Shown here: one piece after another, positions 6,996 to 35,310 of the stretch | Position numbering within the stretch: the stretch's first letter is position 1 | How the letters are laid out: every line of letters begins with the position of its first letter | Source of the DNA: Gemmatimonadota bacterium | GTDB lineage: Bacteria > GCA-2686955 | Assembly (NCBI GenBank): GCA_002686955.1 | Contig: NYZA01000176.1 | Coordinates: 1-35,310 of the forward strand | DNA: 35,310 bases | Direction of reading: 5' to 3' | Made by a program: the position numbers and the translations under genes | The notes under the pieces: generated by a model | Told to the model about the DNA's origin: nothing | Databases searched by the model: none | Seen by the model: the letters and a program-made list of their open reading frames with translations, nothing else

Positions 6996-7027
6996 GAATA
7001 ACTTCCCATTCTTGCGCGAACCCTAAG
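6980..7027. repeat. Small palindromic element with 17-bp arms
   Basis: AGGGTTCGCGCAAGAAT (6983-6999) is repeated as its exact reverse complement at 7008-7024 with an 8-base loop (AACTTCCC). The palindrome is bordered by CTAAG on both sides in direct orientation (6980-6984 and 7023-7027), like a target duplication. It marks the 5' break of the PIN remnant. It is not followed by a T-run, so a simple rho-independent terminator is less likely than a MITE/REP-like element. Confidence 0.7.
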
Positions 7028-7138
7028 TCCTTGAAAGGCAACCAGCCTTCCGGCGGACTCAGCGCTTTGATCGCGGAGCAGGGCCGCATACGGGGCTCGA
7101 AAGCCCATGCGCAACAGGCTCCTAGTGGGGCCGATCCC

Positions 7139-10144: not shown

Positions 10145-10525
10145 TTGTTGTTCATGGGCACCAACGTCTTGCGCCCAGTGATGGGCTCGATTCTCGCCCC
10201 AGCCGTCGCCGCTCTTCTCGCCGGTTGTGTCTTCGACCCGGCTGAGCAGACCGGTCCCGGCGAGCCTGCGCCCGAGCCGGAGCCCTTCACCATCATCCAA
10301 GACACGATGGAGAACTTCCGGCAGGCACACGAGGAGCAAGATATCGAACTTTATCGCTCCTGCCTGAAGACAGAATACCAGCTCTTTCTCGACCCCGCCG
10401 ACGCCGACGAGGTCGGTCACGACTTCTTCTCGAAGCAGGACGATGTGGCCCAGCTGGAGGCGATCTTCGACTCCCCCGATCTCGTCGATATCCGGTTCCA
10501 GGCCGGGGCGATCATCGGCCTCTAG
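10145..10525 (+). CDS. Lipoprotein, 3' end replaced (truncated)
   Basis: Start is TTG 10145 (GGAG six bases upstream) or ATG 10154. A hydrophobic stretch ends in a lipobox, LLAGC, so Cys would be lipidated after cleavage. The mature part has a Pro/Glu-rich linker and then 'FTIIQDTMENFRQAHEEQDIELYRSCL', read in short pieces as the start of a SnoaL/NTF2-like cone-shaped domain common in Eisenbacteria-type lipoproteins. The frame stops at TAG 10523. Just before it the opposite strand begins to read as IS91 transposase, so the C-terminal ~60-80 residues have probably been lost to that insertion. The protein is probably non-functional or altered. Confidence 0.6.
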   Translation: MLFMGTNVLRPVMGSILAPAVAALLAGCVFDPAEQTGPGEPAPEPEPFTIIQDTMENFRQAHEEQDIELYRSCLKTEYQLFLDPADADEVGHDFFSKQDDVAQLEAIFDSPDLVDIRFQAGAIIGL

Positions 10526-11005
10526 GGCGACGCCAACGTGGACGTTGAACCCGCCCGCGCTGGTGTCGCGTCGAGACGCTCCGGCACCTCCCCACGCAAC
10601 GCGCTCGATCGGCGGAATGTGCTTTCCGGAGCGCGGTCCTTGAGCGATGGTGCCGGCGGCGGAGGCGGAGGCGGCGCCGAGGCGCAAGGGGGTTTCATCC
10701 TCCTGGTCGCCCTCTTCCTCGTCGACGCCCTCCATCGTGAATCCGCGCTCTTTCAGCACCCGTCCCACCCGACGACGGACCCGGCGCGCGATGCGGGTCG
10801 AGTCGTCTTCGTCCGGCGCTGGTGTCGGATGGAAGACCAACTCACCGTCCTCCGCTTCCGCGTAGACGCCGTCCAGAACGAGGGCGTGGAAGTGAACATT
10901 GGGTCGTAGGTCGGACCCAAAACGCTGCACGAAGGTGACGGAGCCACAGTGCGAAAGGCGGATGCCCTGCTTGCGCGCCTGGCGCCGGATACAGGCGTAG
11001 ACGGC
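10510..11005 (-). mobile_element. IS91-family transposase remnant A (central/C-terminal part)
   Basis: Minus-strand reading gives AVYACIRRQARKQG, then CGSVTFVQRFGSDLRPNVHF and HALVLDGVYAEAEDG. This is the heart of IS91 HUH-type rolling-circle transposases, with the HUH motif intact (HFH). Further on 'AASASAAGTIAQGPRSG' and 'GGFNVHVGVALEADDR' match later conserved blocks of the family. The zinc-binding N-terminus and the catalytic tyrosine region are absent. The right edge is exactly the 71-bp repeat shared with remnant B; the left edge truncates a lipoprotein gene. Confidence 0.75.
10935..11005 (+). repeat. 71-bp direct repeat, copy 1
   Basis: Identical over 71 bases to 13401-13471 and in the same orientation. 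It encodes, on the minus strand, AVYACIRRQARKQG through HCGSVT of an IS91 transposase. The bases immediately outside differ on both sides (11006 G versus 13472 C; 10934 G versus 13400 A). Confidence 0.95.
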
Positions 11006-11358
11006 GCGTTGGCGCCCGCAACGACTGCGATTCGCCCGTCGAGGGGCATGCCGTGCTTTGCCATAGGCTCTCAGCTTCTCGGGCAACTCTAGCCCCTCCA
11101 CGAGCCTCAGGGAACGGACCCAAACTGCACCTTTCGCAGCTGACGACCTACGATGCTTCCCCCCACACCGCAGCCGGGATCCAGATCGCCCGGACGGTCC
11201 CACCGGACCTCGAGGATCACGTCACAGCTCGACGGATCGGAACCGTCCGACAACGTTCCGGCGCCGATGACGGCGACGGACCTTCCCCAGATTCTGCACG
11301 CCCCCCAGAGTGGCGTTACAATCCTGGGCAACGAGATTCCGAAGAAACGGCCGGGAAC
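11006..11358. other. Leader region of the glycosidase gene
   Basis: No gene recognised in ~350 bases between the IS91 remnant and the start region of the glycosidase gene. IS91 similarity stops at 11005. Contains the promoter-like GTTACAAT at 11315-11322. Confidence 0.5.
11315..11322 (+). promoter_or_regulatory. Possible -10 element (GTTACAAT)
   Basis: Octamer identical to the one on the minus strand at 8632-8639; it lies 78 bases before the start codon at 11400. No clear -35 box. Confidence 0.3.
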
Positions 11359-11402
11359 CCCAAGAGGAGAGTGTGCGATGCCCAAGAGGAGAGTGTGCGA
11401 TG
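11359..11402 (+). repeat. Tandem duplication of a ribosome-binding site plus start codon (2 x 22 bp)
   Basis: Two perfect, adjacent 22-base copies (11359-11380 and 11381-11402), each containing AAGAGGAG followed by ATG. The first ATG (11378) opens a nine-codon ORF, MPKRRVCDE, whose TAG overlaps the region just after the second ATG (11400). The second ATG opens the glycosidase with its signal peptide. Confidence 0.9.
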
Positions 11403-13241
11403 AGTAGATCGTTCCCCCCCCGTGGTTCCGGCCTCGGCAAGCTGTGGCTGCTTCCACCCCTTCTCGCCGTCGTCTCGGCAGAACCCGCATTTTCCGCGGC
11501 CCCCCTCGATCGCACCGCCCAAGCACGTGACGCCCAACCGCAGGTGCTCGAAGCGGGTGTTCAACCGGACATGGCCGCCTTGGAGCCGATCGGTGCAGTG
11601 AGCATCGTGCACCCCGTGGGTCCACCCCCCAACGCCAAATCCCCCTTGGGAATTCACGTGGACTGGATCAACGACTGGTCCGGCGAATGGCCCTTCGTGG
11701 ATGCATTCAAAACGTCGCGACCGTGGATCCCCCAGTGCACCGACCCGCCTCCCACCTGCGACACTTTCTATTGGGACACGGGCGAAGCCGACCTCATCGA
11801 CGTGGACGCCAACGGGTGGGTTCGATCACTCCCCACGGACGGAGACGGCGTCGTTTTTCGATCAGTGGGAACAATTCTCTTCACGGCTCTGGACGGGCAC
11901 TATCCCGCGGGGGAGTACGTCGTCCTATACGACGGGGAGGGGACGATCCTCTACCATGACGGCTTTCTGAATGCGGACGCATCATCCCCTGGGCGAGACG
12001 TTTTGAACGTGGACCCCGAGGCGGGCAACGTCTACATGGAGATCGTCGAGACCGATCCCAACGAAACCGGGAACTACATACGCAATATTCGATTCATCAT
12101 GCCGGGCCTCGAGTTGGTGCACGAAACGCAGCAGTTTCATCCCGATTATCTGGCGTTTTTCAGCCGCTTCAGCATGATTCGATTCTCCGACTGGATGCAG
12201 GTTCAGGAGACGCAGCTTTCCGACTGGGAGGATCGGGCGCGCCCCGAGCACGCGCGCTACTCCGAACTCATCGGTGCTCCTCTCGAGGTCATGATTGATC
12301 TGTGCAATGAGCTCCATGCGGATCCATGGTTCACCCTTCCCCACATGGCCACCGACGATTTCGTCCGAAACTTCGCCGAGCTCACGCTCGCGCGGCTGGA
12401 TCCGGGGCTCTCCGTGTACGTCGAGTACTCCAACGAGGTGTGGAACCCAGTATTCATGCAGGGCGATTGGGTGGAGGATCGCGGGATGGAGAAGTGGCCA
12501 CAAGCCAGTCCTTACACCGCACGCCTCAATTGGTACGGAATGCGCACCGCCGAAGTATGCGACATCTTCGACGAGGTCTGGGGGGACGAGGGAGACCGTG
12601 TCGTGTGCGTAATGGCCGGACAGTCTGGATTCCCGTGGACCCTCGAGCAGGCGCTCGACTGCCCGCTCTGGGACGACGGCCCTTGCTACCCGAACCGCGT
12701 GGACGCCGTCGCCATCTCTTCCTACCTCGGCTACTACATTTCGACTCTGGAGCATGAGGAGGAAGTGGAGACGTGGACTTCCGATCCCGATGGCGGCCTG
12801 GAGAAGCTCTTCACGGAGCTCGAGTTCGGGGGGGTGCTCTCCGGAGGACCTCCAGGGGGTGCTCTCGCAAATGCGCGTGAGCTCATGTCAGTGTGCCTTC
12901 CCGAGGCAAGCTCCCGCGGCCTGCCACTGGTTGCCTACGAGGGAGGCCAGGGGTTGGTCGGGGAGCGCGGGCCAGAGACCCATCCGCTGGTCACAGAGCT
13001 ATTCAACCAGGCCAACCGCGATCCCCGGATGGGCCATCTGTACGACCTATTCCTCGAGGACTGGCGAGCATTGGGCGGTCTCCGATTCAACCACTACACG
13101 AGCTGTCGCAAGCATTCAGTCTGGGGAAGCTACGGGGCGCTCGAGTTTCTCGACGAGGGCAGCGGCCCGAAGTACGACGCTCTCCTCGAGTTCATCGATG
13201 AGAACCCCTGCTGGTGGCAGAACTGTCCCCAGCTGCCCTGA
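11400..13241 (+). CDS. Secreted clan GH-A-like glycoside hydrolase
   Basis: 613 residues from ATG 11400; the open frame begins at 11310 but only this start places a signal peptide (LWLLPPLLAVVSAEPAFSAA) at the N-terminus. The first ~200 residues form a beta-rich domain (SPLGIHVDWINDWSGEWPFV onward). The rest reads as a TIM barrel: 'YVEYSNEVWNP' carries the clan GH-A acid/base Glu346 after Asn345, and 'LVAYEGGQG' carries the candidate nucleophile Glu514. Proteins of this kind are often annotated only as cellulose-binding or hypothetical. The substrate is probably a beta-linked polysaccharide (inference). The gene is the only one in the 2.4-kb segment bracketed by the split IS91 transposase, so it looks like cargo. 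Several Cys residues and export suggest an extracytoplasmic enzyme. Confidence 0.75.
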   Translation: MSRSFPPRGSGLGKLWLLPPLLAVVSAEPAFSAAPLDRTAQARDAQPQVLEAGVQPDMAALEPIGAVSIVHPVGPPPNAKSPLGIHVDWINDWSGEWPFVDAFKTSRPWIPQCTDPPPTCDTFYWDTGEADLIDVDANGWVRSLPTDGDGVVFRSVGTILFTALDGHYPAGEYVVLYDGEGTILYHDGFLNADASSPGRDVLNVDPEAGNVYMEIVETDPNETGNYIRNIRFIMPGLELVHETQQFHPDYLAFFSRFSMIRFSDWMQVQETQLSDWEDRARPEHARYSELIGAPLEVMIDLCNELHADPWFTLPHMATDDFVRNFAELTLARLDPGLSVYVEYSNEVWNPVFMQGDWVEDRGMEKWPQASPYTARLNWYGMRTAEVCDIFDEVWGDEGDRVVCVMAGQSGFPWTLEQALDCPLWDDGPCYPNRVDAVAISSYLGYYISTLEHEEEVETWTSDPDGGLEKLFTELEFGGVLSGGPPGGALANARELMSVCLPEASSRGLPLVAYEGGQGLVGERGPETHPLVTELFNQANRDPRMGHLYDLFLEDWRALGGLRFNHYTSCRKHSVWGSYGALEFLDEGSGPKYDALLEFIDENPCWWQNCPQLP

Positions 13242-13400
13242 CAACTAGAGACGAGGTTTCGAGCCTGACGAGTCGGTCCGTGTTGGCGGTGAGCTACCCG
13301 GGGCTTTTCGCCCTCGCACTCGGCCCGGCAGCCCCGTCGGCTGCCGGAGTGCTGTTTCGGGATCAGACGATATTTCTGCGCTTTTCGGTGATCGGTGACA

Positions 13401-13471
13401 GTGACGGAGCCACAGTGCGAAAGGCGGATGCCCTGCTTGCGCGCCTGGCGCCGGATACAGGCGTAGACGGC
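13401..13471 (+). repeat. 71-bp direct repeat, copy 2
   Basis: Identical to 10935-11005 over 71 bases, same orientation; forms the left edge of IS91 remnant B. Confidence 0.95.
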
Positions 13472-13560
13472 CCGCAGGAACTCGCGCAGGACGAGTCGGC
13501 GCAGATCCGACTTGAATGCGACCAGCGCCCGGAGGTCGAAGGGGAAGATCCCTCTCGACC
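13401..13560 (-). mobile_element. IS91-family transposase remnant B (part upstream of remnant A)
   Basis: Minus-strand reading gives IFPFDLRALVAFKSDLRRLV, LREFLRAVYACIRRQARKQG and then HCGSVT, where similarity stops exactly at the end of the 71-bp repeat. This is the part of IS91 transposase that directly precedes remnant A. The family's zinc-finger N-terminus is missing, with similarity lost above ~13560. Joining B to A across the shared 71 bp keeps one reading frame. Confidence 0.75.
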
Positions 13561-13593: not shown

Positions 13594-13818
13594 GTTCGGA
13601 TCACGCGTCGTCATCATCCGCTCGTCGGTGAGGAGTTGGTAGTCCTGCGGAGCTGCAAAGGGCATTTGGTCGTTCGATTGCCCGACGGCTCGCCGATGAT
13701 GATCCGGCGGGACTGGACCAACGCAGATGGAGAATCAGCCCGCCCTCTGCCGACCCGGGACGCGCTGCTCACGGCAGCCGTGCTGCTGGAACTCGCTGAG
13801 TTACTCGACGCGCCGTGA
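13594..13818 (+). pseudogene. DUF5372-like small transposon-associated protein, 5'-truncated
   Basis: The frame reads '[18 protein letters not shown]', then '[20 protein letters not shown]' and ends '[17 protein letters not shown]'. This matches the short DUF5372 / Y4bD-type proteins, usually found beside recombinase genes of transposons. The sequence before ~13594 belongs to the neighbouring IS91 fragment, so the natural start is lost unless one of the few upstream codons is used. Function of the family is unknown. Confidence 0.45.
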
Positions 13819-14810
13819 GCTCGCTCGTGAGCCAGTGGCCCAGGACGCGGCAAAGAGGCGACGTCCGTCGGGCTCGGTGAGATGAGCTCACCGCCGAGGC
13901 CTTGGTGGTGCCGTTCCCCATGATAATGCTCGGCGTATGTTCCGATCGCGCGTCGCAGGTGGTCCTCTCCCAGAGGGACGATGCGATCGATGCACTCAGA
14001 TTTTGCCGAAAGAACGAAGCGCTCGGCAAAAGCGTTCAGATCGGGACTCATCGCCGGCAGCCGCACCGCGGACACGCCGCTGTCCTTCAGGAACCGGCGG
14101 TACCCCGCCGTGTAGAGTGGATCCCGGTCCAGGATGATGTACCGCATGCTCAGCAGGAATCCCTCCTCGCAGTCGGTGAGGTTCCTGGCGATCTGTTGCA
14201 TCCATGAACCGCACGGGTTGCACGTGATGCCTGCGATCTCTACTCTGCGCGTCCTGATGTCCATCACGAAGAACACGGAATAGCGGACGAGGCCAAGGAG
14301 CTTGAGCACCTCCACGGTGCAGAAGTCGGCGGCGGAGATCTCGCCGAGGTGGGCCTTGATGAACGGCTTCCACGAGGGCTGCCTTTTCCGCTCTGGTGCG
14401 GGTTCCATGCCGTGGTCGAGGAGGATCCGCTTGATTGTGTTCCTGCCGATCTCGTGCCCAAGGTGGCGAAGAGCGTCGCGGAGCCTCGTGTAGCCCCAGC
14501 TCGGATTCTCGTTGGCCACCCTGCGGACCAGCTCGGCGATGTCCGTCCTCGTGCGTGGGCGGCCCGGGCCTCGCTTCCGCGACCCGTCGTACTTCTTGGC
14601 GACGAGCCGCCGGTACCAGCGGAGGATCGTGTCGGGCGTCACGATGCCGGCGACCTTCCCGAGGACCTTGCGGCCCAGGACCTTGGCCCTCACGGCGAGG
14701 CGGCGCCGCTGGTCATCGGTGAGGCGAAGCCGGCGTCCGTTGAGTTGCTGGCGGAGCACGCGGTTCTCCTCCATCAAGTAGTCGATGACGCGCTGCTGAT
14801 GGCGGTTCAC
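13614..14810 (-). CDS. DD35E integrase-core transposase (IS3/IS481-like), altered C-terminus
   Basis: Start taken at GTG 14810 ([20 protein letters not shown]); family members usually have ~25 more N-terminal residues, and the frame here is open to 14975 without resembling them. A helix-turn-helix region ([20 protein letters not shown], ~58-76) precedes an rve/DDE domain with Asp162 (ADFCTVEV), Asp228 ([11 protein letters not shown]) and Glu263 (LNAFAERFV), i.e. a DD(35)E spacing, so the catalytic core is intact. It acts on transposon ends. After '[10 protein letters not shown]' (~residue 310, near 13880) the usual C-terminus is gone and the frame runs through the antisense of the DUF5372 fragment to a stop at 13614. 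Terminal inverted repeats were not found. Probably defective. Confidence 0.75.
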
Positions 14811-14975
14811 TCTAGTCGTCGGCCTATCGTTTCTACGGTAACCCTCCCGACGGTGGCCCTTCCGTTGGCTTCCGGGTAGCTTGTTCGGCGCCACAGGAGT
14901 GGTCTCCACATAGGTTGAGGTTACCCCACGGATATTGGGCTTCATCGCTGGGAGCCGACTTACCCCGCAACGCAC

Positions 14976-15296
14976 GCCTTACGGCGCTTCGTTTTCGTTC
15001 GGCACGGTCTTGCACCTATGGCTTCCATCGGCCCCACCCTCGCGGATGCGGCAGACGAGCGTCCGAGCACGCTTGTAACTGATTCCACCTCGAACCGGTG
15101 GGAAGTGGCGAAGACATGCGAACACGCCGCTGTAGCAGAAATCCGGTAAGAAATCCTGAATGGCCCAAATGCCGGCCTTCGCCGCACTGTCCCCGTTGAG
15201 ACGGTTGCTCTGAGCAGGCACCTAATCTGACTGCGTTCACCGGCGCTGTGAGAAATCCGAAATAGTGCATACTGCTCCTGCGATCCGAATGAAGCG
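14976..15296. other. Intergenic region, nothing recognised
   Basis: About 320 bases between the transposase and a beta-helix gene; overlapping short ORFs have no recognisable motifs and no obvious inverted repeats were seen. Confidence 0.5.
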
Positions 15297-25453: not shown

Positions 25454-25636
25454 ATGCCCCAGCGCTCTAACCCGCATTCCTCACCAACTTTCTGCTGTGG
25501 CGGCGCATCTCCGCACCCTGGCAGCACTTCCCCCCATTTCGCTTTGTGCGACGTGCAACCAGCACGCCTCAGCGCGAAACGGTGCGAAGCACCGCCGGGG
25601 CACGAATCTGCGCCCCCTCACGACGAAAGTTGGTGA
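25454..25636 (+). CDS. Leader ORF created by MITE insertion
   Basis: 60 residues, starting at the well-spaced AGGAGG/ATG, reading through the inserted element and ending at TGA 25634-25636, three bases before ATG 25640 of the radical SAM gene. Only the first five or six codons are ancestral; the rest (several Cys and His, 'FCCGGASPHPG') is MITE sequence without known function. Its arrangement would allow ribosomes loaded at the strong site to terminate and restart at 25640. The ORF itself is clear, the role is inference. Confidence 0.4.
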   Translation: MPQRSNPHSSPTFCCGGASPHPGSTSPHFALCDVQPARLSAKRCEAPPGHESAPPHDESW

Positions 25637-25646
25637 GAAATGCGGG
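25471..25646. repeat. MITE-like element inserted in the radical SAM gene's 5' end
   Basis: Terminal inverted repeats of 22 bases with one mismatch: CCCGCATTCCTCACCAACTT.. at 25471-25492 and its complement GAAAGTTGGTGAGAAATGCG.. at 25625-25646. They are flanked by direct repeats CTAA (25467-25470 and 25647-25650), as for a 4-bp target duplication, or TA within it. Interior ~130 bases without gene. Removing element plus one CTAA takes out exactly 180 bases, a multiple of three, and restores 'MPQRSNAPPSHTDVLLF' as a continuous start. Confidence 0.75.
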
Positions 25647-27082
25647 CTAACGCTCCCCCCTCCCACACCGACGTCTTGCTTTTCATGCCGCCGTACTGGG
25701 ACGTCTACGGTGATATCGACGTCCGCAAGATCGGATTCATCCTCCCCTCCCTGGGGGTGGCCTACGTCGCGAGCTACCTGAAGGGCAACGGGATCAAGGT
25801 CCGTCTGGTCGACGTGGCCTGCGCCATTCGGTCCGAGGAGGAGGTAGCGAGCACGATCAGGGAGCTCAGGCCGCGCATGGTCGGCATAACCGCGGTCACC
25901 GCCGGCATGCCGACGGTCCACCGAATCGCCCAGATCACGAAGCAGATCGACCCCGAGATCGTGGTGGTCGCGGGTGGCCCCCATCCCTCCGCCCTCCCCG
26001 CCGACACCCTCGAGGAGCCCGCCATCGACCTGGTCGTGGAGGGCGAAGGTGAGGTCCCGCTCTTGGAGCTCGCCCGCGGCACGAGCCCCGAGGCAGTGCC
26101 CGGTGTGACCTTTCGGGGACACGACGGCGGCATCGTCTCCGTGCCCCGGGGCCCACTGCTGGAGGACATGGACGCGCTCCCGGTCCCCCTCTTTGATCAC
26201 CTGCCCGTGCACGACTACGGATATCTGGTCCTGGGCAACGCGCTCCCGGTGCTCAGCGCCCGTGGCTGTCCCTTGCCCTGCACGTTTTGCGCCTCCACGG
26301 TGGTGAACCAGAGACGCTATCGGGCACGAAGTCCGGAGGCGTTCGCGGACGAGATCCGGTGGATTCACAGCCGCTTCGGGATCGATTCCTACGTCTTCTG
26401 CGACGACACGTTCACGCTGGATCAGAAGCGCACCGTCGCACTCTGTGAGGAGCTTCTACGCCTCGACTTTCCGATCCGCTGGTCCTGCATGATTCGAGCC
26501 GCGGGGCTGCGCAGATCCACCCTGGCCATCATGAAGCGGGCGGGGTGTCGCTTGGTCGAAATCGGCGCCGAGTCCGGAGACGAGGAGATCCTCGAGTCCA
26601 TCCAAAAAAAGACGAAGCTGCACGAGATTCGAACCACCGTCGATCGCGCCAAGGGCGTGGGTCTCTTGACCAATGCGTTTTTCATCCTCGGGCTCCCCGG
26701 GGAGACCCCGGAGACAGTAAAGCGAACCATCGACTTTGCGGCCAGCCTCCCCATTGATTTCGCGCAGTTCTCCATGTTCACTCCGCTGCCGGGGACCGCG
26801 TCCTGGGATCAGGTCGAGGAGTCCCCGGACATGGAGTGCATCGCCAATGATTGGAGCGATTTCTCCCGGTACCGAGGGGCCATCGTGAACTCGACCGCCC
26901 TTCCCGCGAGGGAGCTGGAGGCCCTTCATCGATCCGCCATTCGACGGTTCTACTTCCGTCCTGCGACCGCGTGGCGCTCCTTCCGTCGAATGGAGACCCT
27001 GGGGGACGTTCGACGGCTTCTCCACCAGGCCGCATCGGTGGCTAGGATGGCGCGCCTGCGCCGTCCGCAATCCGCCGGCTGA
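25640..27082 (+). CDS. B12-binding-domain radical SAM enzyme
   Basis: 480 residues. Residues 11-150 form a cobalamin-binding Rossmann-like domain ('DVLLFMPPYWDVYG', 'VVVAGGPHPSALP', 'IDLVVEGEGEVP'). The radical SAM centre is C210-x3-C214-x2-C217 (SARGCPLPCTFCAST), with 'EIGAESGDEEILESIQKK' and 'FFILGLPGETPETVKRT' as later SAM-binding motifs. Enzymes of this class do methylations or rearrangements on lipids, hopanoids, glycans and cofactors. ATG 25640 is the only start that keeps the first strand, and it lies inside a MITE repeat (TIR base A then TGCGGG); TGA 25634 blocks any earlier start in this frame. The downstream gene follows after 17 bases. Placement beside membrane and glycosyltransferase genes suggests a surface lipid or glycan substrate. 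Confidence 0.88.
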   Translation: MRANAPPSHTDVLLFMPPYWDVYGDIDVRKIGFILPSLGVAYVASYLKGNGIKVRLVDVACAIRSEEEVASTIRELRPRMVGITAVTAGMPTVHRIAQITKQIDPEIVVVAGGPHPSALPADTLEEPAIDLVVEGEGEVPLLELARGTSPEAVPGVTFRGHDGGIVSVPRGPLLEDMDALPVPLFDHLPVHDYGYLVLGNALPVLSARGCPLPCTFCASTVVNQRRYRARSPEAFADEIRWIHSRFGIDSYVFCDDTFTLDQKRTVALCEELLRLDFPIRWSCMIRAAGLRRSTLAIMKRAGCRLVEIGAESGDEEILESIQKKTKLHEIRTTVDRAKGVGLLTNAFFILGLPGETPETVKRTIDFAASLPIDFAQFSMFTPLPGTASWDQVEESPDMECIANDWSDFSRYRGAIVNSTALPARELEALHRSAIRRFYFRPATAWRSFRRMETLGDVRRLLHQAASVARMARLRRPQSAG

Positions 27083-30908: not shown

Positions 30909-31390
30909 CCTTCCCGGGTTTTTCGGACACCGAGGTTGAAGAGGGGAAGGGGGTGCCGTCGTGGTTGAAGGCGAAGACGGACGCTTCACCCGGTGCAGCG
31001 CTGACATGCCCGGCGGTAATGATCTCCATAGCACCGTTGAGATCGAGGTCGGCGATCGCGAATCCCGATTCCACGATTTCGTCGATGTCGATCGGCCAAC
31101 CGGGGAGCGGGGCGCCTTGACTATCGAGTAGGGTCAGGCCGCTTGCGTTGTATCCCCAGATCCAGGCGGTCGCGTGGAGAGCTTCGAGATGGCCGTCTCC
31201 GTCGACGTCGAATAGGGTGACCGCCGCGGTGACGACAACAGGTTGCCCAGAAGTCACTGGCCAACCAGGCAGCTCCTGTCCGTCGATGTCGACCGCGTGT
31301 ATCCTCCCAAGAGCCCCTTGCTCGTACTCGGCGAATACCGCTTCGATGACCCGGCCGCGCGTCGGGGTGGGCTCCATCCGTGCGAGTGGG
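30909..31390 (-). pseudogene. Internal fragment of a secreted FG-GAP/VCBS-repeat protein
   Basis: The minus-strand frame has two FG-GAP-like calcium loops, 'LFDVDGDGHLEALHATA' and 'IADLDLNGAMEIITAG', plus 'HAVDIDGQELPGWPVTSGQP' and 'SQGAPLPGWPIDIDEI', repeat linkers of this exported family. Both ends are broken: on the left at the DegT junction (~30906) and on the right at the end of the IS91 remnant (31405). Neither signal peptide nor C-terminus is present. Confidence 0.65.
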
Positions 31391-31404
31391 TCCACCGGAG
31401 GCAC

Positions 31405-32059
31405 TCAGGTACCTCGTCGCTTCCCCTGCGCGATCGGCCCCGCGGCCGATGCAGCGGCAAACTCCAGCTGGAGCTCGGGCTCCTCACCATCGGCACCCGA
31501 GTACACCCCGTCCAGCGCAAGGACGCGGAAGTGGAGGTTTACGCGCGGGTCGGAACCGAACCTCTGCTCGAACGTCACCGACCCGCACGCACTGGGGGTT
31601 GGGCACACCGAGCTGCCTCCCCTTCCGACGAAGCCAGGTGTAGATCGCTCCGTTGAACGTCCGCGGCACCACCCGCCGGAGCTTGGCGTCGAAGGGGAGG
31701 CTAAGCACCCACTGCCGTACGGGGACGTGTGGGAAGACGTGGTCGACGAGATGGGCGGCATGGTCGGCCATGCGGCGACCGGTACACGATGGGCAGAATC
31801 CACGACCCCGGCAAGAGAAAGGGCCAAGCCGATCGTGTCCACAGTCGTGGCAGTGAACACGTGCGATACCGTGACTGAAGATCCCGCAGGTAGGAAAAGA
31901 TCGGAGCTAATCCTTGACGAACCCCGGGAGCTCCCGATCACCGGCTTCGGTCCTTTCGAGGAAGGTCTCGAGGTGGCACTGAAGCACCCGATAGAGCACC
32001 GTGGTCTCGGGGTGCCGGGGACTGTAGAGCGGTCCGCATGAGGGCGCCAGGGACGACAT
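31405..32059 (-). mobile_element. IS91-family transposase remnant C, one nonsense and one frameshift
   Basis: From ATG 32059 the sequence reads 'RHPETTVLYRVLQCHLETFL', 'LPGFVKD', then TAG (31907-31909, where Glu/Gln is expected). It continues in the same frame through a zinc-binding region ('CHDCGHDRL', 'GFCPSCTGRRM') and 'VPVRQWVLSLPFDAKL', the trademark of IS91 transposases. Near 31594-31606 (a G5/GGG run) the good frame shifts by one to 'CGSVTFEQRFGSDPRVNLHF', then '(R)VLALDGVYSG' and 'AAASAAGPIAQGKRRGT'. The HUH motif reads HFR, so a metal-ligand His is lost. The catalytic Tyr region is missing. Inactive; the ends of the element were not found. Confidence 0.8.
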
Positions 32060-32500
32060 GGCGGACGGGTGTGCGCACGACTCGTGCTCGGTGAGCGCCA
32101 CCGGGGGAATGAGCTGCGCCCAGAAGGTCCGCGGACGGTGTACAGCCCTCTCTTGGCGCGTCTGCCGCGGCGCCCCGGCTCTGCCTGCGTTTCGGGCCGA
32201 GGGGCACGGGGAAGATAGCTGCTCGACCCGTGCTGGGTCAGCTCATGACGCTCCGCGGCCAGGGACCGTTTGACGGTGGACGCAGCCCCGGACCGAATTG
32301 GAGGCCACGGGTCCCCCTCTTGGATCAGTGGGGCAAGCTGGATACGGCCCTGGGATCGGAAACGGCGCAGCCCAGCATCGATCTGTGCGAATATGGAAGG
32401 CTGATCCTTTTTCGAGGATGCGACACACTGGATCCAGCATGAAAAGCCGGATCAGGTGAATCAGCATCTATTGGAGTGTTTTCAGGAGTGAATTTGCCCC
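32060..32500. other. Transition zone into the low-GC block
   Basis: About 440 bases with no recognised gene. GC is high up to ~32380 and falls visibly from there; the junction with the foreign block lies somewhere at 32380-32480. No inverted repeat or att-like duplication was spotted by eye. Confidence 0.45.
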
Positions 32501-33045
32501 ATGAAAGGTTTTCCCGCCGTCGTAAACAAAAGTAGCAAGGTGCTGATAGTGGCCACCTTCCCAAGTGCCGAATCGCTCAAAGTGAACTAGTATTACGCCA
32601 ATGTCACAAATCTCTTCTGGCCGCTGGCCTTTGCCGTGCTGGAAGGGACGGCTGATGAATCGGAAGCAGAGCGTTGGAATCCCGTTACACCCTATAAAGA
32701 AAAGACAGCATTTGCCTTAAAGCACGGCGCAGCCCTCTGGGATGTGCTGCGCTCCTGCGAGCGGAAGACCAGTGCCGACAAAGATATTCTGAAACCCAAA
32801 GCAAACAGCTTCAGCAGGCTCTATGCAAAACACCCTGGCCGAAGGCAGTCATGTTCCATGGAGGCGAAAAAAAACAGCCCCCGAAAAGTGTGGCCTGGCA
32901 TTATCAAAAACTGGTGGGCCTGTATGACACCCGCACATTCGGCACGCTGTATTCTTCGAGCGAAGCACATTGCGACCCAAGCGGATATGATTCCCTGTTT
33001 TCAAAGGAATACGACGACTGGAAGGCGATCCGGGCCCATCTTTGA
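32501..33045 (+). pseudogene. Decayed DNA-deoxyinosine (uracil-DNA-glycosylase family) glycosylase
   Basis: From ATG 32501 the frame reads 'KVLIVATFPSAESLKVN', TAG (32588-32590), 'YYANVTNLFWPLAF', and 'PYKEKTAFALKHGAALWDVL'. Intact relatives have 'SL...QYY.HP.N.FW', so the TAG is probably a CAG (Gln) to TAG change. Near 32835-32850 the good frame moves to 'AVMFHGGEKKQ', then ends 'LYSSSEAHCD...YDDWKAIRAHL' at 33045, where the family has a 'LPSTSPA' block followed by 'W..I...L'. So at least one nonsense, one frameshift and a damaged active-site loop. The ancestral enzyme removed hypoxanthine or uracil from DNA. It is probably from the same donor as the adjacent acyl-CoA synthetase gene: both are lower in GC than the rest of the window. 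Confidence 0.65.
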
Positions 33046-33116
33046 GACAGATTGCCAAGAATCCTCCCAGCCTGTAAATTGGGCGCCCAGTTTTCAAAAG
33101 CAACCGGAGACCGCAC

Positions 33117-34946
33117 ATGAAACATCCGCCATTCGAAAATACTGTTACGCATCTATTCAAACAGGCCGAAGAGCAGGGAAGTTCTGCCGCGGTCGCCTAT
33201 AAGCAAGACGGAGCCTGGCATGACATCAGCTGGGAGCAGTATGCCAGCGATGTCCATACCGCCGCGGCGGGTTTGGTAAAACTGGGGCTTGGAAAAGGCG
33301 ATACTGTCTGCATTCTGGGATTCAACTGTTACGAATGGGTGGTTATGGATCTTGCTGCAATCATGATCGGCGCCATTCCTGCAGGGATTTATACCACCAG
33401 CTCACCGGAAGAAGTGGCCTACATCCTGAACCATTCCGAAGCCAGGGTGCTGCTGCTGGAAAGTACGGAACAATGGAACAAGATCATCGCCCAGCAGGCT
33501 AACCTTGAACACCTCAAAGATGTGGTGAGCATGATCCGTTGCGAAGATATTGCGGATGAAATGGCCATGGATTGGGCAACATTCATGGGGATCGGTTCGG
33601 ACAACGATAAGGCTGCTGTGGAAAAGCTCTATGCAGCATCAGCGGAACATGAAGCAGCAACATTTATTTATACGTCTGGCACCACCGGCCCTCCAAAAGC
33701 GGTGATGCTGTCTAACAAAAATCTGGTGTGGACGGCCAGCCAGGCAGCCGATATGATCAAACTGGACGCGACCGATTCATCACTTTCCTATCTGCCGCTT
33801 TCGCACATTGCTGAGCAGATGTTTACAATCCATGCCCCTATCATTGTAGGCTGGAAAGTTTATTTTGCTACGGGTATTCTGGATGTGCTGGAGAACCTAA
33901 AAGAAGTAAAACCGACGGTCTTGTTTGGTGTGCCAAGAATCTGGGAAAAATTCTATACAGGCCTTAAGGAAAAACTTGGTGAAGCCAGCGGCCTTAAGGA
34001 AAAGATTGTCAACTTTTCTCTGAAAGCCGGTTCGGAAAACAGTGCGGATATTTTCAGCGGCGGAGATGGCGGCGGATGGAAATACAGACTTGCGAATAAA
34101 CTGCTATTCGGAAAAGTAAAGGATGCCCTTGGCCTAAGTAATCTTCGGGTCGGTGTTACAGGAGCTGCACCCATTAATGCCGAAATTCTAAAACTCTTTG
34201 CCAGCCTCGATATTCCCATCTTGGAAGTTTATGGGCAGTCCGAAGGTTCGGGGCCGACGTCTTTTAACCGTCCGAGGAATAACAAACCCGGGTCTGTGGG
34301 GCCGGCTTATCCGGGAACGGAAGTCAAGATCGCTGACGACGGCGAAATCATGCTTAAAGGTCCGAATGTTTTTCTTGGTTATTACAAGGATCAGGAAGGA
34401 ACCGACGCCTGTTTAGAAGACGGCTGGCTGTACTCAGGTGATGTCGGAAAATTTGATGAGGACGGCTTCCTTTATGTTACCGGGCGCAAGAAGGAAATAC
34501 TCGTAACATCCGGAGGAAAAAATATTGCGCCGATCCCAATCGAAGAAGACCTTAAGCAAATCCCGGCTGTTGCTCAAGCCGTAATGGTCGGTGATAATCG
34601 TAATTTCTGCACTGCGCTGCTAACGCTGGATGTAGGATATCTGCTCAAGGATAAAATGGGCGTCGACATTACCGATATCAGCCCTTTGGAACTGGTGAAT
34701 GTGCTGGAATCAAAGGGCAAGACCGTGCAGGGATTTGCGGAGAGTGCCGAAATCCTTTCAGAGATTCAGGCTGGTGTGGATAAGGTCAACAGCAAGTATG
34801 CGCAGGTGGAGAACATTCGAAAATTTGCTGTACTTCCGCGGGACTTTACTATGGCCGATGATGAAGTGACGCCGACCTTCAAGATCAAGCGATCGAAGAT
34901 CTACGCGAAGTGGGCCGATACCATCGATTCGCTGTACACCGGCTAA
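33117..34946 (+). CDS. Long-chain fatty acyl-CoA synthetase (AMP-forming)
   Basis: 609 residues, normal length for FAA1/FadD15-type enzymes, which activate fatty acids to acyl-AMP and then acyl-CoA. GGAG lies 10 bases before ATG 33117. The P-loop-like AMP motif 'FIYTSGTTGPPKA' (~183-195), 'GVTGAAPINAEILKLF' (~345-360), 'EVYGQSEGSGPTSF' (~370) and 'GWLYSGDVGKFDEDGFLYVT' (~436) are intact. The hinge 'TGRKKEILVTSGGKN' and the C-terminal Lys region 'TPTFKIKRSKIY' are present. It is about 50% GC by eye, against 60-65% for the neighbours, with codons like AAA, GAA and ATT frequent, so a recent transfer (gamma-proteobacterial or similar donor) or a misjoin. It appears intact and could be expressed from the donor's own signals. 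Confidence 0.9.
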   Translation: MKHPPFENTVTHLFKQAEEQGSSAAVAYKQDGAWHDISWEQYASDVHTAAAGLVKLGLGKGDTVCILGFNCYEWVVMDLAAIMIGAIPAGIYTTSSPEEVAYILNHSEARVLLLESTEQWNKIIAQQANLEHLKDVVSMIRCEDIADEMAMDWATFMGIGSDNDKAAVEKLYAASAEHEAATFIYTSGTTGPPKAVMLSNKNLVWTASQAADMIKLDATDSSLSYLPLSHIAEQMFTIHAPIIVGWKVYFATGILDVLENLKEVKPTVLFGVPRIWEKFYTGLKEKLGEASGLKEKIVNFSLKAGSENSADIFSGGDGGGWKYRLANKLLFGKVKDALGLSNLRVGVTGAAPINAEILKLFASLDIPILEVYGQSEGSGPTSFNRPRNNKPGSVGPAYPGTEVKIADDGEIMLKGPNVFLGYYKDQEGTDACLEDGWLYSGDVGKFDEDGFLYVTGRKKEILVTSGGKNIAPIPIEEDLKQIPAVAQAVMVGDNRNFCTALLTLDVGYLLKDKMGVDITDISPLELVNVLESKGKTVQGFAESAEILSEIQAGVDKVNSKYAQVENIRKFAVLPRDFTMADDEVTPTFKIKRSKIYAKWADTIDSLYTG

Positions 34947-34963
34947 TTTCCCTTGTCACATGA

Positions 34964-35310
34964 TCCACGGAATTCCGCTACTCCGTGATTTCGGGACGGG
35001 AGCCTGTGGAGCTTTCGGTTTACGAGCTCTCCGGAAGACGGGTGAGGCGGCTGGTAGTGGGGAGAGTCAGGGCTGGCACCCATCGGGTTGCGTGGGACGG
35101 CCGCAACGATGCTGGCTCGAGGGTGCCCAGCTGTGTGTATCTCTATCACCTGACACTCGGCAGATTGCTCATGCTGGCAGGGTCCCTTCGATTGGCGTCA
35201 GTGATATGGCATCTGCGTAGCGCGCCAAAGCGTGGCTGGCTGCCGCGCGATCGGCGGCGGAAGGCAAGCGCCGGGTACAGGGAGAGCGGGAGCCAGCTCG
35301 CTTCGTGGCC
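34964..35310 (+). pseudogene. FlgD/T9SS-like C-terminal tail fragment of a host-type secreted protein
   Basis: From 34964 the frame reads 'STEFRYSVISGREPVELSVY', 'ELSGRRVRRLVVGRVRAG', 'HRVAWDGRNDAGSRVPSCVY' and 'LYHL'. This is the FlgD-like Ig tail of FCB surface proteins, beginning exactly within the NPFNPST motif (a TGA at 34961 replaces the Pro). The tail resembles the one at 15297-15560. It stays open to the window end without the normal 'K-stop' finish, so it may be frameshifted. It shows that sequence of host type resumes within ~20 bases of the acyl-CoA synthetase stop. Confidence 0.65.

What the first reader, a model, noticed from the sequence alone, without database searches (positions are those of the whole stretch)
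10510..13560. IS91 transposase split by a 2.4-kb glycosidase segment with an exact 71-bp direct repeat at the break
Seen: 10935-11005 equals 13401-13471. Left of the cargo is the later part of the transposase, right of it the earlier part; both stop at the repeat, and deleting 11006-13471 restores one continuous frame. The cargo holds a complete exported GH-A-like glycosidase gene. A 71-bp duplication is too long for a normal target-site duplication. It suggests replication slippage or rolling-circle capture, or recombination between two IS91 copies that picked up the gene. A 71-bp exact overlap could also come from a de Bruijn assembly error.
Basis: partly seen in the sequence, partly recalled or inferred. 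Interest (0 to 1): 0.72.

Follow-up and report, generated by a model that had tools for sequence, protein, structure and literature searches.

The report
Sugar-cutting enzyme gene splitting transposase remnant
In the draft genome of an uncultured bacterium, an intact gene for a secreted sugar-cutting enzyme sits between two pieces of a dead jumping gene that share an identical 71-letter stretch; the layout is probably real and resembles known genes flanked by partial IS91 copies, so it is mildly interesting rather than a new mechanism.

Summary
Window 10935-11005 equals 13401-13471 exactly. Removing 11006-13471 joins two minus-strand fragments into one open frame that matches the middle (about residues 125-325) of an IS91-family transposase. 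The 2,395-bp segment between the repeats carries one complete transcription-unit-like gene: signal peptide, 613-aa protein, hairpin. The protein's predicted fold is clan GH-A. The transposase is a dead shard: the zinc domain, the catalytic-tyrosine region and both element ends are missing. The breakpoints lie inside the gene, so IS91 rolling-circle transposition did not place the enzyme gene here. A 71-bp de Bruijn artefact is unlikely. Contig termini in this MAG share exactly 99 bp (three pairs), so the final k was about 99-100; repeats of 57-85 bp are carried through contig interiors elsewhere; no competing contig with an uninterrupted remnant or a second copy of the segment was found. The codon usage of the gene is typical of the host. 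Best reading: a gene between direct partial copies of one IS91 remnant, like the hly operon flanked by partial IS91s; the repeat should allow deletion by recombination. How the duplication arose is not settled.

The parts
10145..10525 (+). truncated lipoprotein gene; homology to the intact paralog ends at 10504, where the IS91 remnant begins
   Evidence: 81% identical to residues 1-117 of a 190-aa paralog on contig C141; the tail is absent from the window
10504..10934 (-). left IS91-family transposase fragment, unique part (later part of the protein; HUH motif HFH, ends before the catalytic-tyrosine region)
10935..11005 (-). direct repeat copy 1 (71 bp), coding AVYACIRRQARKQGIRLSHCGSV in the transposase frame
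11006..13400 (+). inserted segment, 2,395 bp, single copy in the genome, no terminal inverted repeats
11359..11402 (+). tandem 22-bp duplication containing the putative ribosome-binding site and start codon of the glycosidase
   Evidence: family D4; sequence
11400..13241 (+). complete exported clan GH-A-like glycosidase, 613 aa, with putative signal peptide
13325..13347 (+). terminator-like hairpin after the glycosidase, inside the segment
   Evidence: consensus match only; 2 found against 1.6 expected
13401..13471 (-). direct repeat copy 2 (71 bp)
13472..13546 (-). right IS91-family transposase fragment, unique part (earlier part of the protein)
13614..14975 (-). neighbouring IS481/IS3-like transposase ORF close to the remnant
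31348..32199 (-). second, independent IS91-family remnant in the same contig (zinc domain and first half, one stop codon)

Best explanation
A native-looking gene for a secreted GH-A-type glycosidase lies between two partial, directly repeated copies of one IS91-family transposase remnant. The remnant is a dead shard. Its duplicated 71 bp come from recombination or duplication within IS91 sequence: two near-identical direct copies eroded to complementary pieces, or entry or exit of the segment by crossover at the shared stretch. They are not a target-site duplication made by IS91 itself. The working consequence is that the two 71-bp copies are a substrate for homologous recombination; a crossover would excise a 2,466-bp circle with the gene and leave one continuous, still non-functional, transposase fragment. 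Shown: the repeat, the frame, the absence of the outer parts of the transposase, the single-copy segment, host-like codon usage, the k of the assembly. Inferred: that the layout is physically real, how it formed, and that excision happens.
For: Exact repeat and restored frame. Continuous match of the joined protein to IS91 elements. The remnant covers only residues about 125-325, so both outer parts are missing and the breakpoints are internal. Several other short IS91 shards occur in this genome, so fragmentation of this family is usual here. Glycosidase codon usage is at the 61st percentile of 842 host ORFs. No IS91-like sequence lies near any of 80 glycosidase relatives, so the gene is not a regular IS91 passenger. 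Contig termini share exactly 99 bp in three pairs and no exact repeat exceeds 99 bp in 1.83 Mb; no branch contigs touch either junction within the bin. Published parallel: incomplete IS91 copies in direct orientation flank hly and recombine to delete it, RecA-facilitated and RecA-independent (PMC3214074).
Against: No reads, no second strain and no close relative with or without the segment. Two independently truncated copies meeting with only 71 bp of overlap is somewhat coincidental. The 100% identity exceeds the 73-91% seen between the other shards, which suits a single recent duplication event as well as two recent copies.
Confidence: 0.55

Rival explanations
1. One IS91 remnant received the segment in a single illegitimate insertion that duplicated 71 bp of target, for example by fill-in of a widely staggered break or by template switching during repair.
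For: One event explains complementary halves, perfect frame restoration and 100% identity of the repeat. Two unrelated shards landing 2.4 kb apart in a 4.3-Mb genome with about ten shards would be rare.
Against: 71 bp is far longer than target duplications of known bacterial transposases (general knowledge). No transposase, integrase or terminal inverted repeats belong to the segment. No donor copy remains in the bin.
Confidence: 0.22
2. Assembly artefact: the assembler joined the glycosidase segment into an uninterrupted transposase remnant through the shared 71 bp.
For: Short-read MAG with 270 contigs and 84.5% completeness; many contigs break in short repeats. No reads could be examined.
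Against: Final k is about 99-100, longer than the repeat. Non-terminal exact repeats of 57-85 bp pass through contigs elsewhere, without a peak at 71. A false join would still need the repeat to touch the segment on both sides in some molecule; no alternative contigs for remnant or segment exist in the bin. Codon usage does not suggest a cross-species join.
Confidence: 0.15
3. The 71 bp are the att-like identity block of a small integrated element or circle that carries the glycosidase (Campbell-type integration at the remnant, by RecA or a recombinase acting in trans).
For: Direct exact repeats at the edges of a compact cargo are what such integration leaves; the segment carries a whole gene and a hairpin.
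Against: No integrase in the segment; the repeat occurs nowhere else in the genome; the repeat lies inside a decayed transposase, not in a tRNA gene (one search found no tRNA) or other usual site.
Confidence: 0.08

Closest known systems
hly operon flanked by partial IS91 copies on pHly152 (PMC3214074)
   Same: gene(s) between incomplete IS91 copies in direct orientation that share direct-repeat stretches; no complete transposase needed for deletion
   Different: hly has five partial copies of the IS91 of E. coli; here there are two pieces of one distant IS91-like remnant sharing only 71 bp, around a glycosidase in an uncultured bacterium; no deletion has been observed
ISCR/IS91-family one-ended transposition units
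   Same: the remnant belongs to the same transposase superfamily (PF04986; ISCR clade model NF052416 at 63.6 bits)
   Different: in ISCR units the cargo lies next to an element end; here the cargo interrupts the transposase gene and its outer parts are missing; the ISCR score is far below its cut-off of 925
Uncharacterised clan GH-A-like secreted proteins in Methylococcaceae, cyanobacteria, Thiotrichaceae, Chloroflexi and others
   Same: the glycosidase is a full-length member at up to about 50% identity
   Different: the examined relatives are not near IS91 sequences

Membership tests
IS91 family (remnant) | Y2_Tnp domain with HUH motif | tested here: met
   PF04986 29.5 bits against 20.9, profile positions 1-70 of 183 only; motif NVHFHALVLDGVY
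IS91 family (remnant) | N-terminal zinc-binding domain (PF14319) | tested here: not met
   found at C61 and at window 31697-31981 but not at this locus
IS91 family (remnant) | catalytic tyrosine region and C-terminal part | tested here: not met
   homology to the C61 transposase stops at residue 325, before LCRYVARPP
IS91 family (remnant) | oriIS and terIS ends | tested here: inconclusive
   not scanned as motifs; both outer parts of the gene are missing, so the ends cannot lie at the breakpoints
Gene flanked by partial IS91 copies (hly type) | direct partial IS91 copies with a shared identical stretch on both sides of a gene | tested here: met
Gene flanked by partial IS91 copies (hly type) | deletion by recombination at the repeat | not testable with these tools
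   no reads or strains
Ordinary transposon with target-site duplication | own transposase and terminal inverted repeats, short duplication | tested here: not met
   none in 11006-13400; duplication is 71 bp
Clan GH-A glycosidase | TIM-barrel fold with acid/base NE and nucleophile E | tested here: met
   listed Foldseek hits are clan GH-A type enzymes (GH51, GH53, GH5, GH1, GH10 and others), best E 1.4e-07, TM modest; N345-E346 and E514 invariant in 28 sequences; activity not tested

The most novel reading that the evidence does not exclude
A trans-mobilised minimal gene cassette: the glycosidase unit moves as a circle that integrates at a 71-bp identity block inside IS91 transposase sequence, so dead IS91 shards would act as docking sites for gene cassettes in this lineage.
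Probability: 0.04. Interest if true: 0.6.

Novelty: new member of a known kind. Interest (0 to 1): 0.2.

Why it matters
If the layout is real, it is a compact natural example of a gene made deletable by dead IS91 fragments, outside the pathogen settings where this was described. It also shows how to separate repeat-bounded insertions in a MAG from de Bruijn artefacts, by reading the k of the assembly from contig-end overlaps.

Tried and rejected
Homology of the left junction beyond 11006 to the IS91 N-terminus: a gapped tblastn alignment runs to 11092, but it does not exceed shuffles, so it was rejected. Missing tail of the truncated lipoprotein in or near the segment: not found. Terminal inverted repeats at the segment ends: none. 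Second copy of the segment or of its edges in this or the same-family genome: none. Close relatives of the remnant in viral contigs and in plasmids by DNA: none. The first genome-contig scan with the single glycosidase protein found nothing; an alignment query found 444 relatives. PDB sequence searches with the glycosidase gave nothing meaningful. Literature searches on assembler behaviour gave nothing specific.

Full report
What is there. The window is the whole of contig C176 of a metagenome-assembled genome of 4.28 Mb in 270 contigs, 84.5% complete. Only one other genome of its family is held. The 71-bp stretches 10935-11005 and 13401-13471 are identical, and their flanks differ at once on both sides. 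Read on the minus strand, the right copy continues upstream as ...PFDLRALVAFKSDLRRLVLREFLR and the left copy continues downstream as FVQRFGSDLRPNVHFHALVLDGVY.... Joined at the repeat they form one open frame. A 110-residue part of that frame matches plasmid IS91 elements without a break; the joined fragment scores above the Pfam cut-off for Y2_Tnp, and the left piece matches an ISCR model weakly.

The transposase is a shard. Against the best-preserved IS91-like transposase of the same genome (contig C61, 465-aa open frame), the left piece aligns with residues 122-325 and the right piece with residues 125-190; only the part of the right piece up to the end of the repeat (about residue 175) is real homology, and the left piece beyond 11006 is not. 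The zinc domain, the catalytic-tyrosine region and hence the ends of the element are missing. On its left side the shard begins at about 10504, where homology of a lipoprotein gene to an intact paralog on contig C141 stops. The repeat lies in the middle of the transposase gene, just before the HUH motif. IS91 rolling-circle transposition starts and ends at the element's ends (general knowledge), so it cannot by itself have put the cargo at this place.

The segment. 11006-13400 contains one complete gene, 11400-13241, with a plausible signal peptide (by eye) and a hairpin downstream. No Pfam or NCBIfam model matches it. A profile built from three relatives found 444 relatives in many phyla, the best at about 50% identity. 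A 28-sequence alignment keeps the NE pair (345-346) and E514 invariant. The AlphaFold model has mean pLDDT 83, and the listed Foldseek hits are clan GH-A type glycosidases, although with modest TM-scores. The substrate is unknown. Codon usage is typical of the host (61st percentile of 842 ORFs). The segment is single copy in this genome and absent from the same-family genome. None of 80 relatives lies near an IS91-like sequence within the 4-kb flanks fetched. There are no terminal inverted repeats.

Could it be an assembly artefact? Because no reads are available, the assembly itself was used. In 140 stretches of other contigs plus the window (1.83 Mb) the longest exact repeat is 99 bp, and it occurs only at contig termini. 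Three independent pairs of contig termini share exactly 99 bp, counting C206/C198. This is the mark of a final k of about 99 or 100. A 71-bp repeat is shorter than that and would not by itself cause a join. Exact repeats of 57-85 bp run through the interiors of other contigs, and repeat lengths show no peak at 71. No contig of the bin holds an uninterrupted version of the remnant or a second context for the segment. An error made at an intermediate k, or one involving sequence that was not binned, cannot be excluded; I give it about 15%.

How it most likely arose. Other short IS91 shards are scattered in this genome, typically 73-91% identical at the DNA level to this one, so two independent shards with a perfect 71-bp overlap 2.4 kb apart are unlikely. 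The two pieces therefore probably come from one copy, or from two nearly identical neighbouring copies. Three routes fit: two direct copies eroded to complementary pieces or recombined; a single insertion with a long staggered duplication; or crossover of a circle carrying the gene and the 71 bp. The first has a direct published parallel, in which five incomplete IS91 copies flank the hly operon, and stretches repeated in direct orientation are the targets of deletions that need no IS91 transposase (PMC3214074). I therefore file the locus as a gene flanked by partial IS91 copies, and mark the formation route as inferred.

Verdict. Real observation, modest interest. Its rolling-circle capture idea is not supported, its artefact worry is lessened but not removed, and its recombination idea remains open.

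Noticed in passing
window 14876-15049 (-): Group II intron domain match (RF02001, 39 bits, cut-off 32) directly 5' of, and overlapping the start of, the IS481/IS3-like transposase ORF 13614-14975, as if a transposase sat in the position of an intron-encoded protein or had inserted into an intron remnant.
   Followed up: partly
window 25462-25664: Dispersed repeat of about 185 bp with more than 20 copies in the sampled contigs, many at contig ends, and matches on both strands (partly palindromic); probably one of the things that break this assembly.
   Followed up: partly
window 7023-7127, 2209-2346 and 2407-2858: Further dispersed repeat families present on many other contigs.
   Followed up: no
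window 32400-35310: GC falls from about 64% to about 49%; the acyl-CoA ligase 33117-34946 has codon usage about 2.4 SD below the host mean. Horizontal transfer or a chimeric contig end, next to the second IS91 remnant.
   Followed up: partly
window 11359-11402: Perfect tandem 22-bp duplication spanning the putative ribosome-binding site and start codon of the glycosidase; the first copy would encode a 9-residue leader overlapping the real start.
   Followed up: no
window 10145-10504 and L175 3037-3606: Lipoprotein gene truncated at the IS91 edge; an intact paralog on contig C141, with 81% DNA identity extending upstream to 9940, and a homolog in the same-family genome.
   Followed up: yes
L109 (contig C72) 1972, 5055, 7166, 12818; L051 (contig C15) 3513, 7256: Six direct copies of a sharply bounded repeat of about 85 bp, 2-6 kb apart, on two contigs; a diverged copy on L133. 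Nature unknown.
   Followed up: partly
L055 (contig C206) 11250-11380: IS91 N-terminal piece joined directly to the same C-terminal piece found at window 10526-10592: an internally deleted IS91 remnant.
   Followed up: partly
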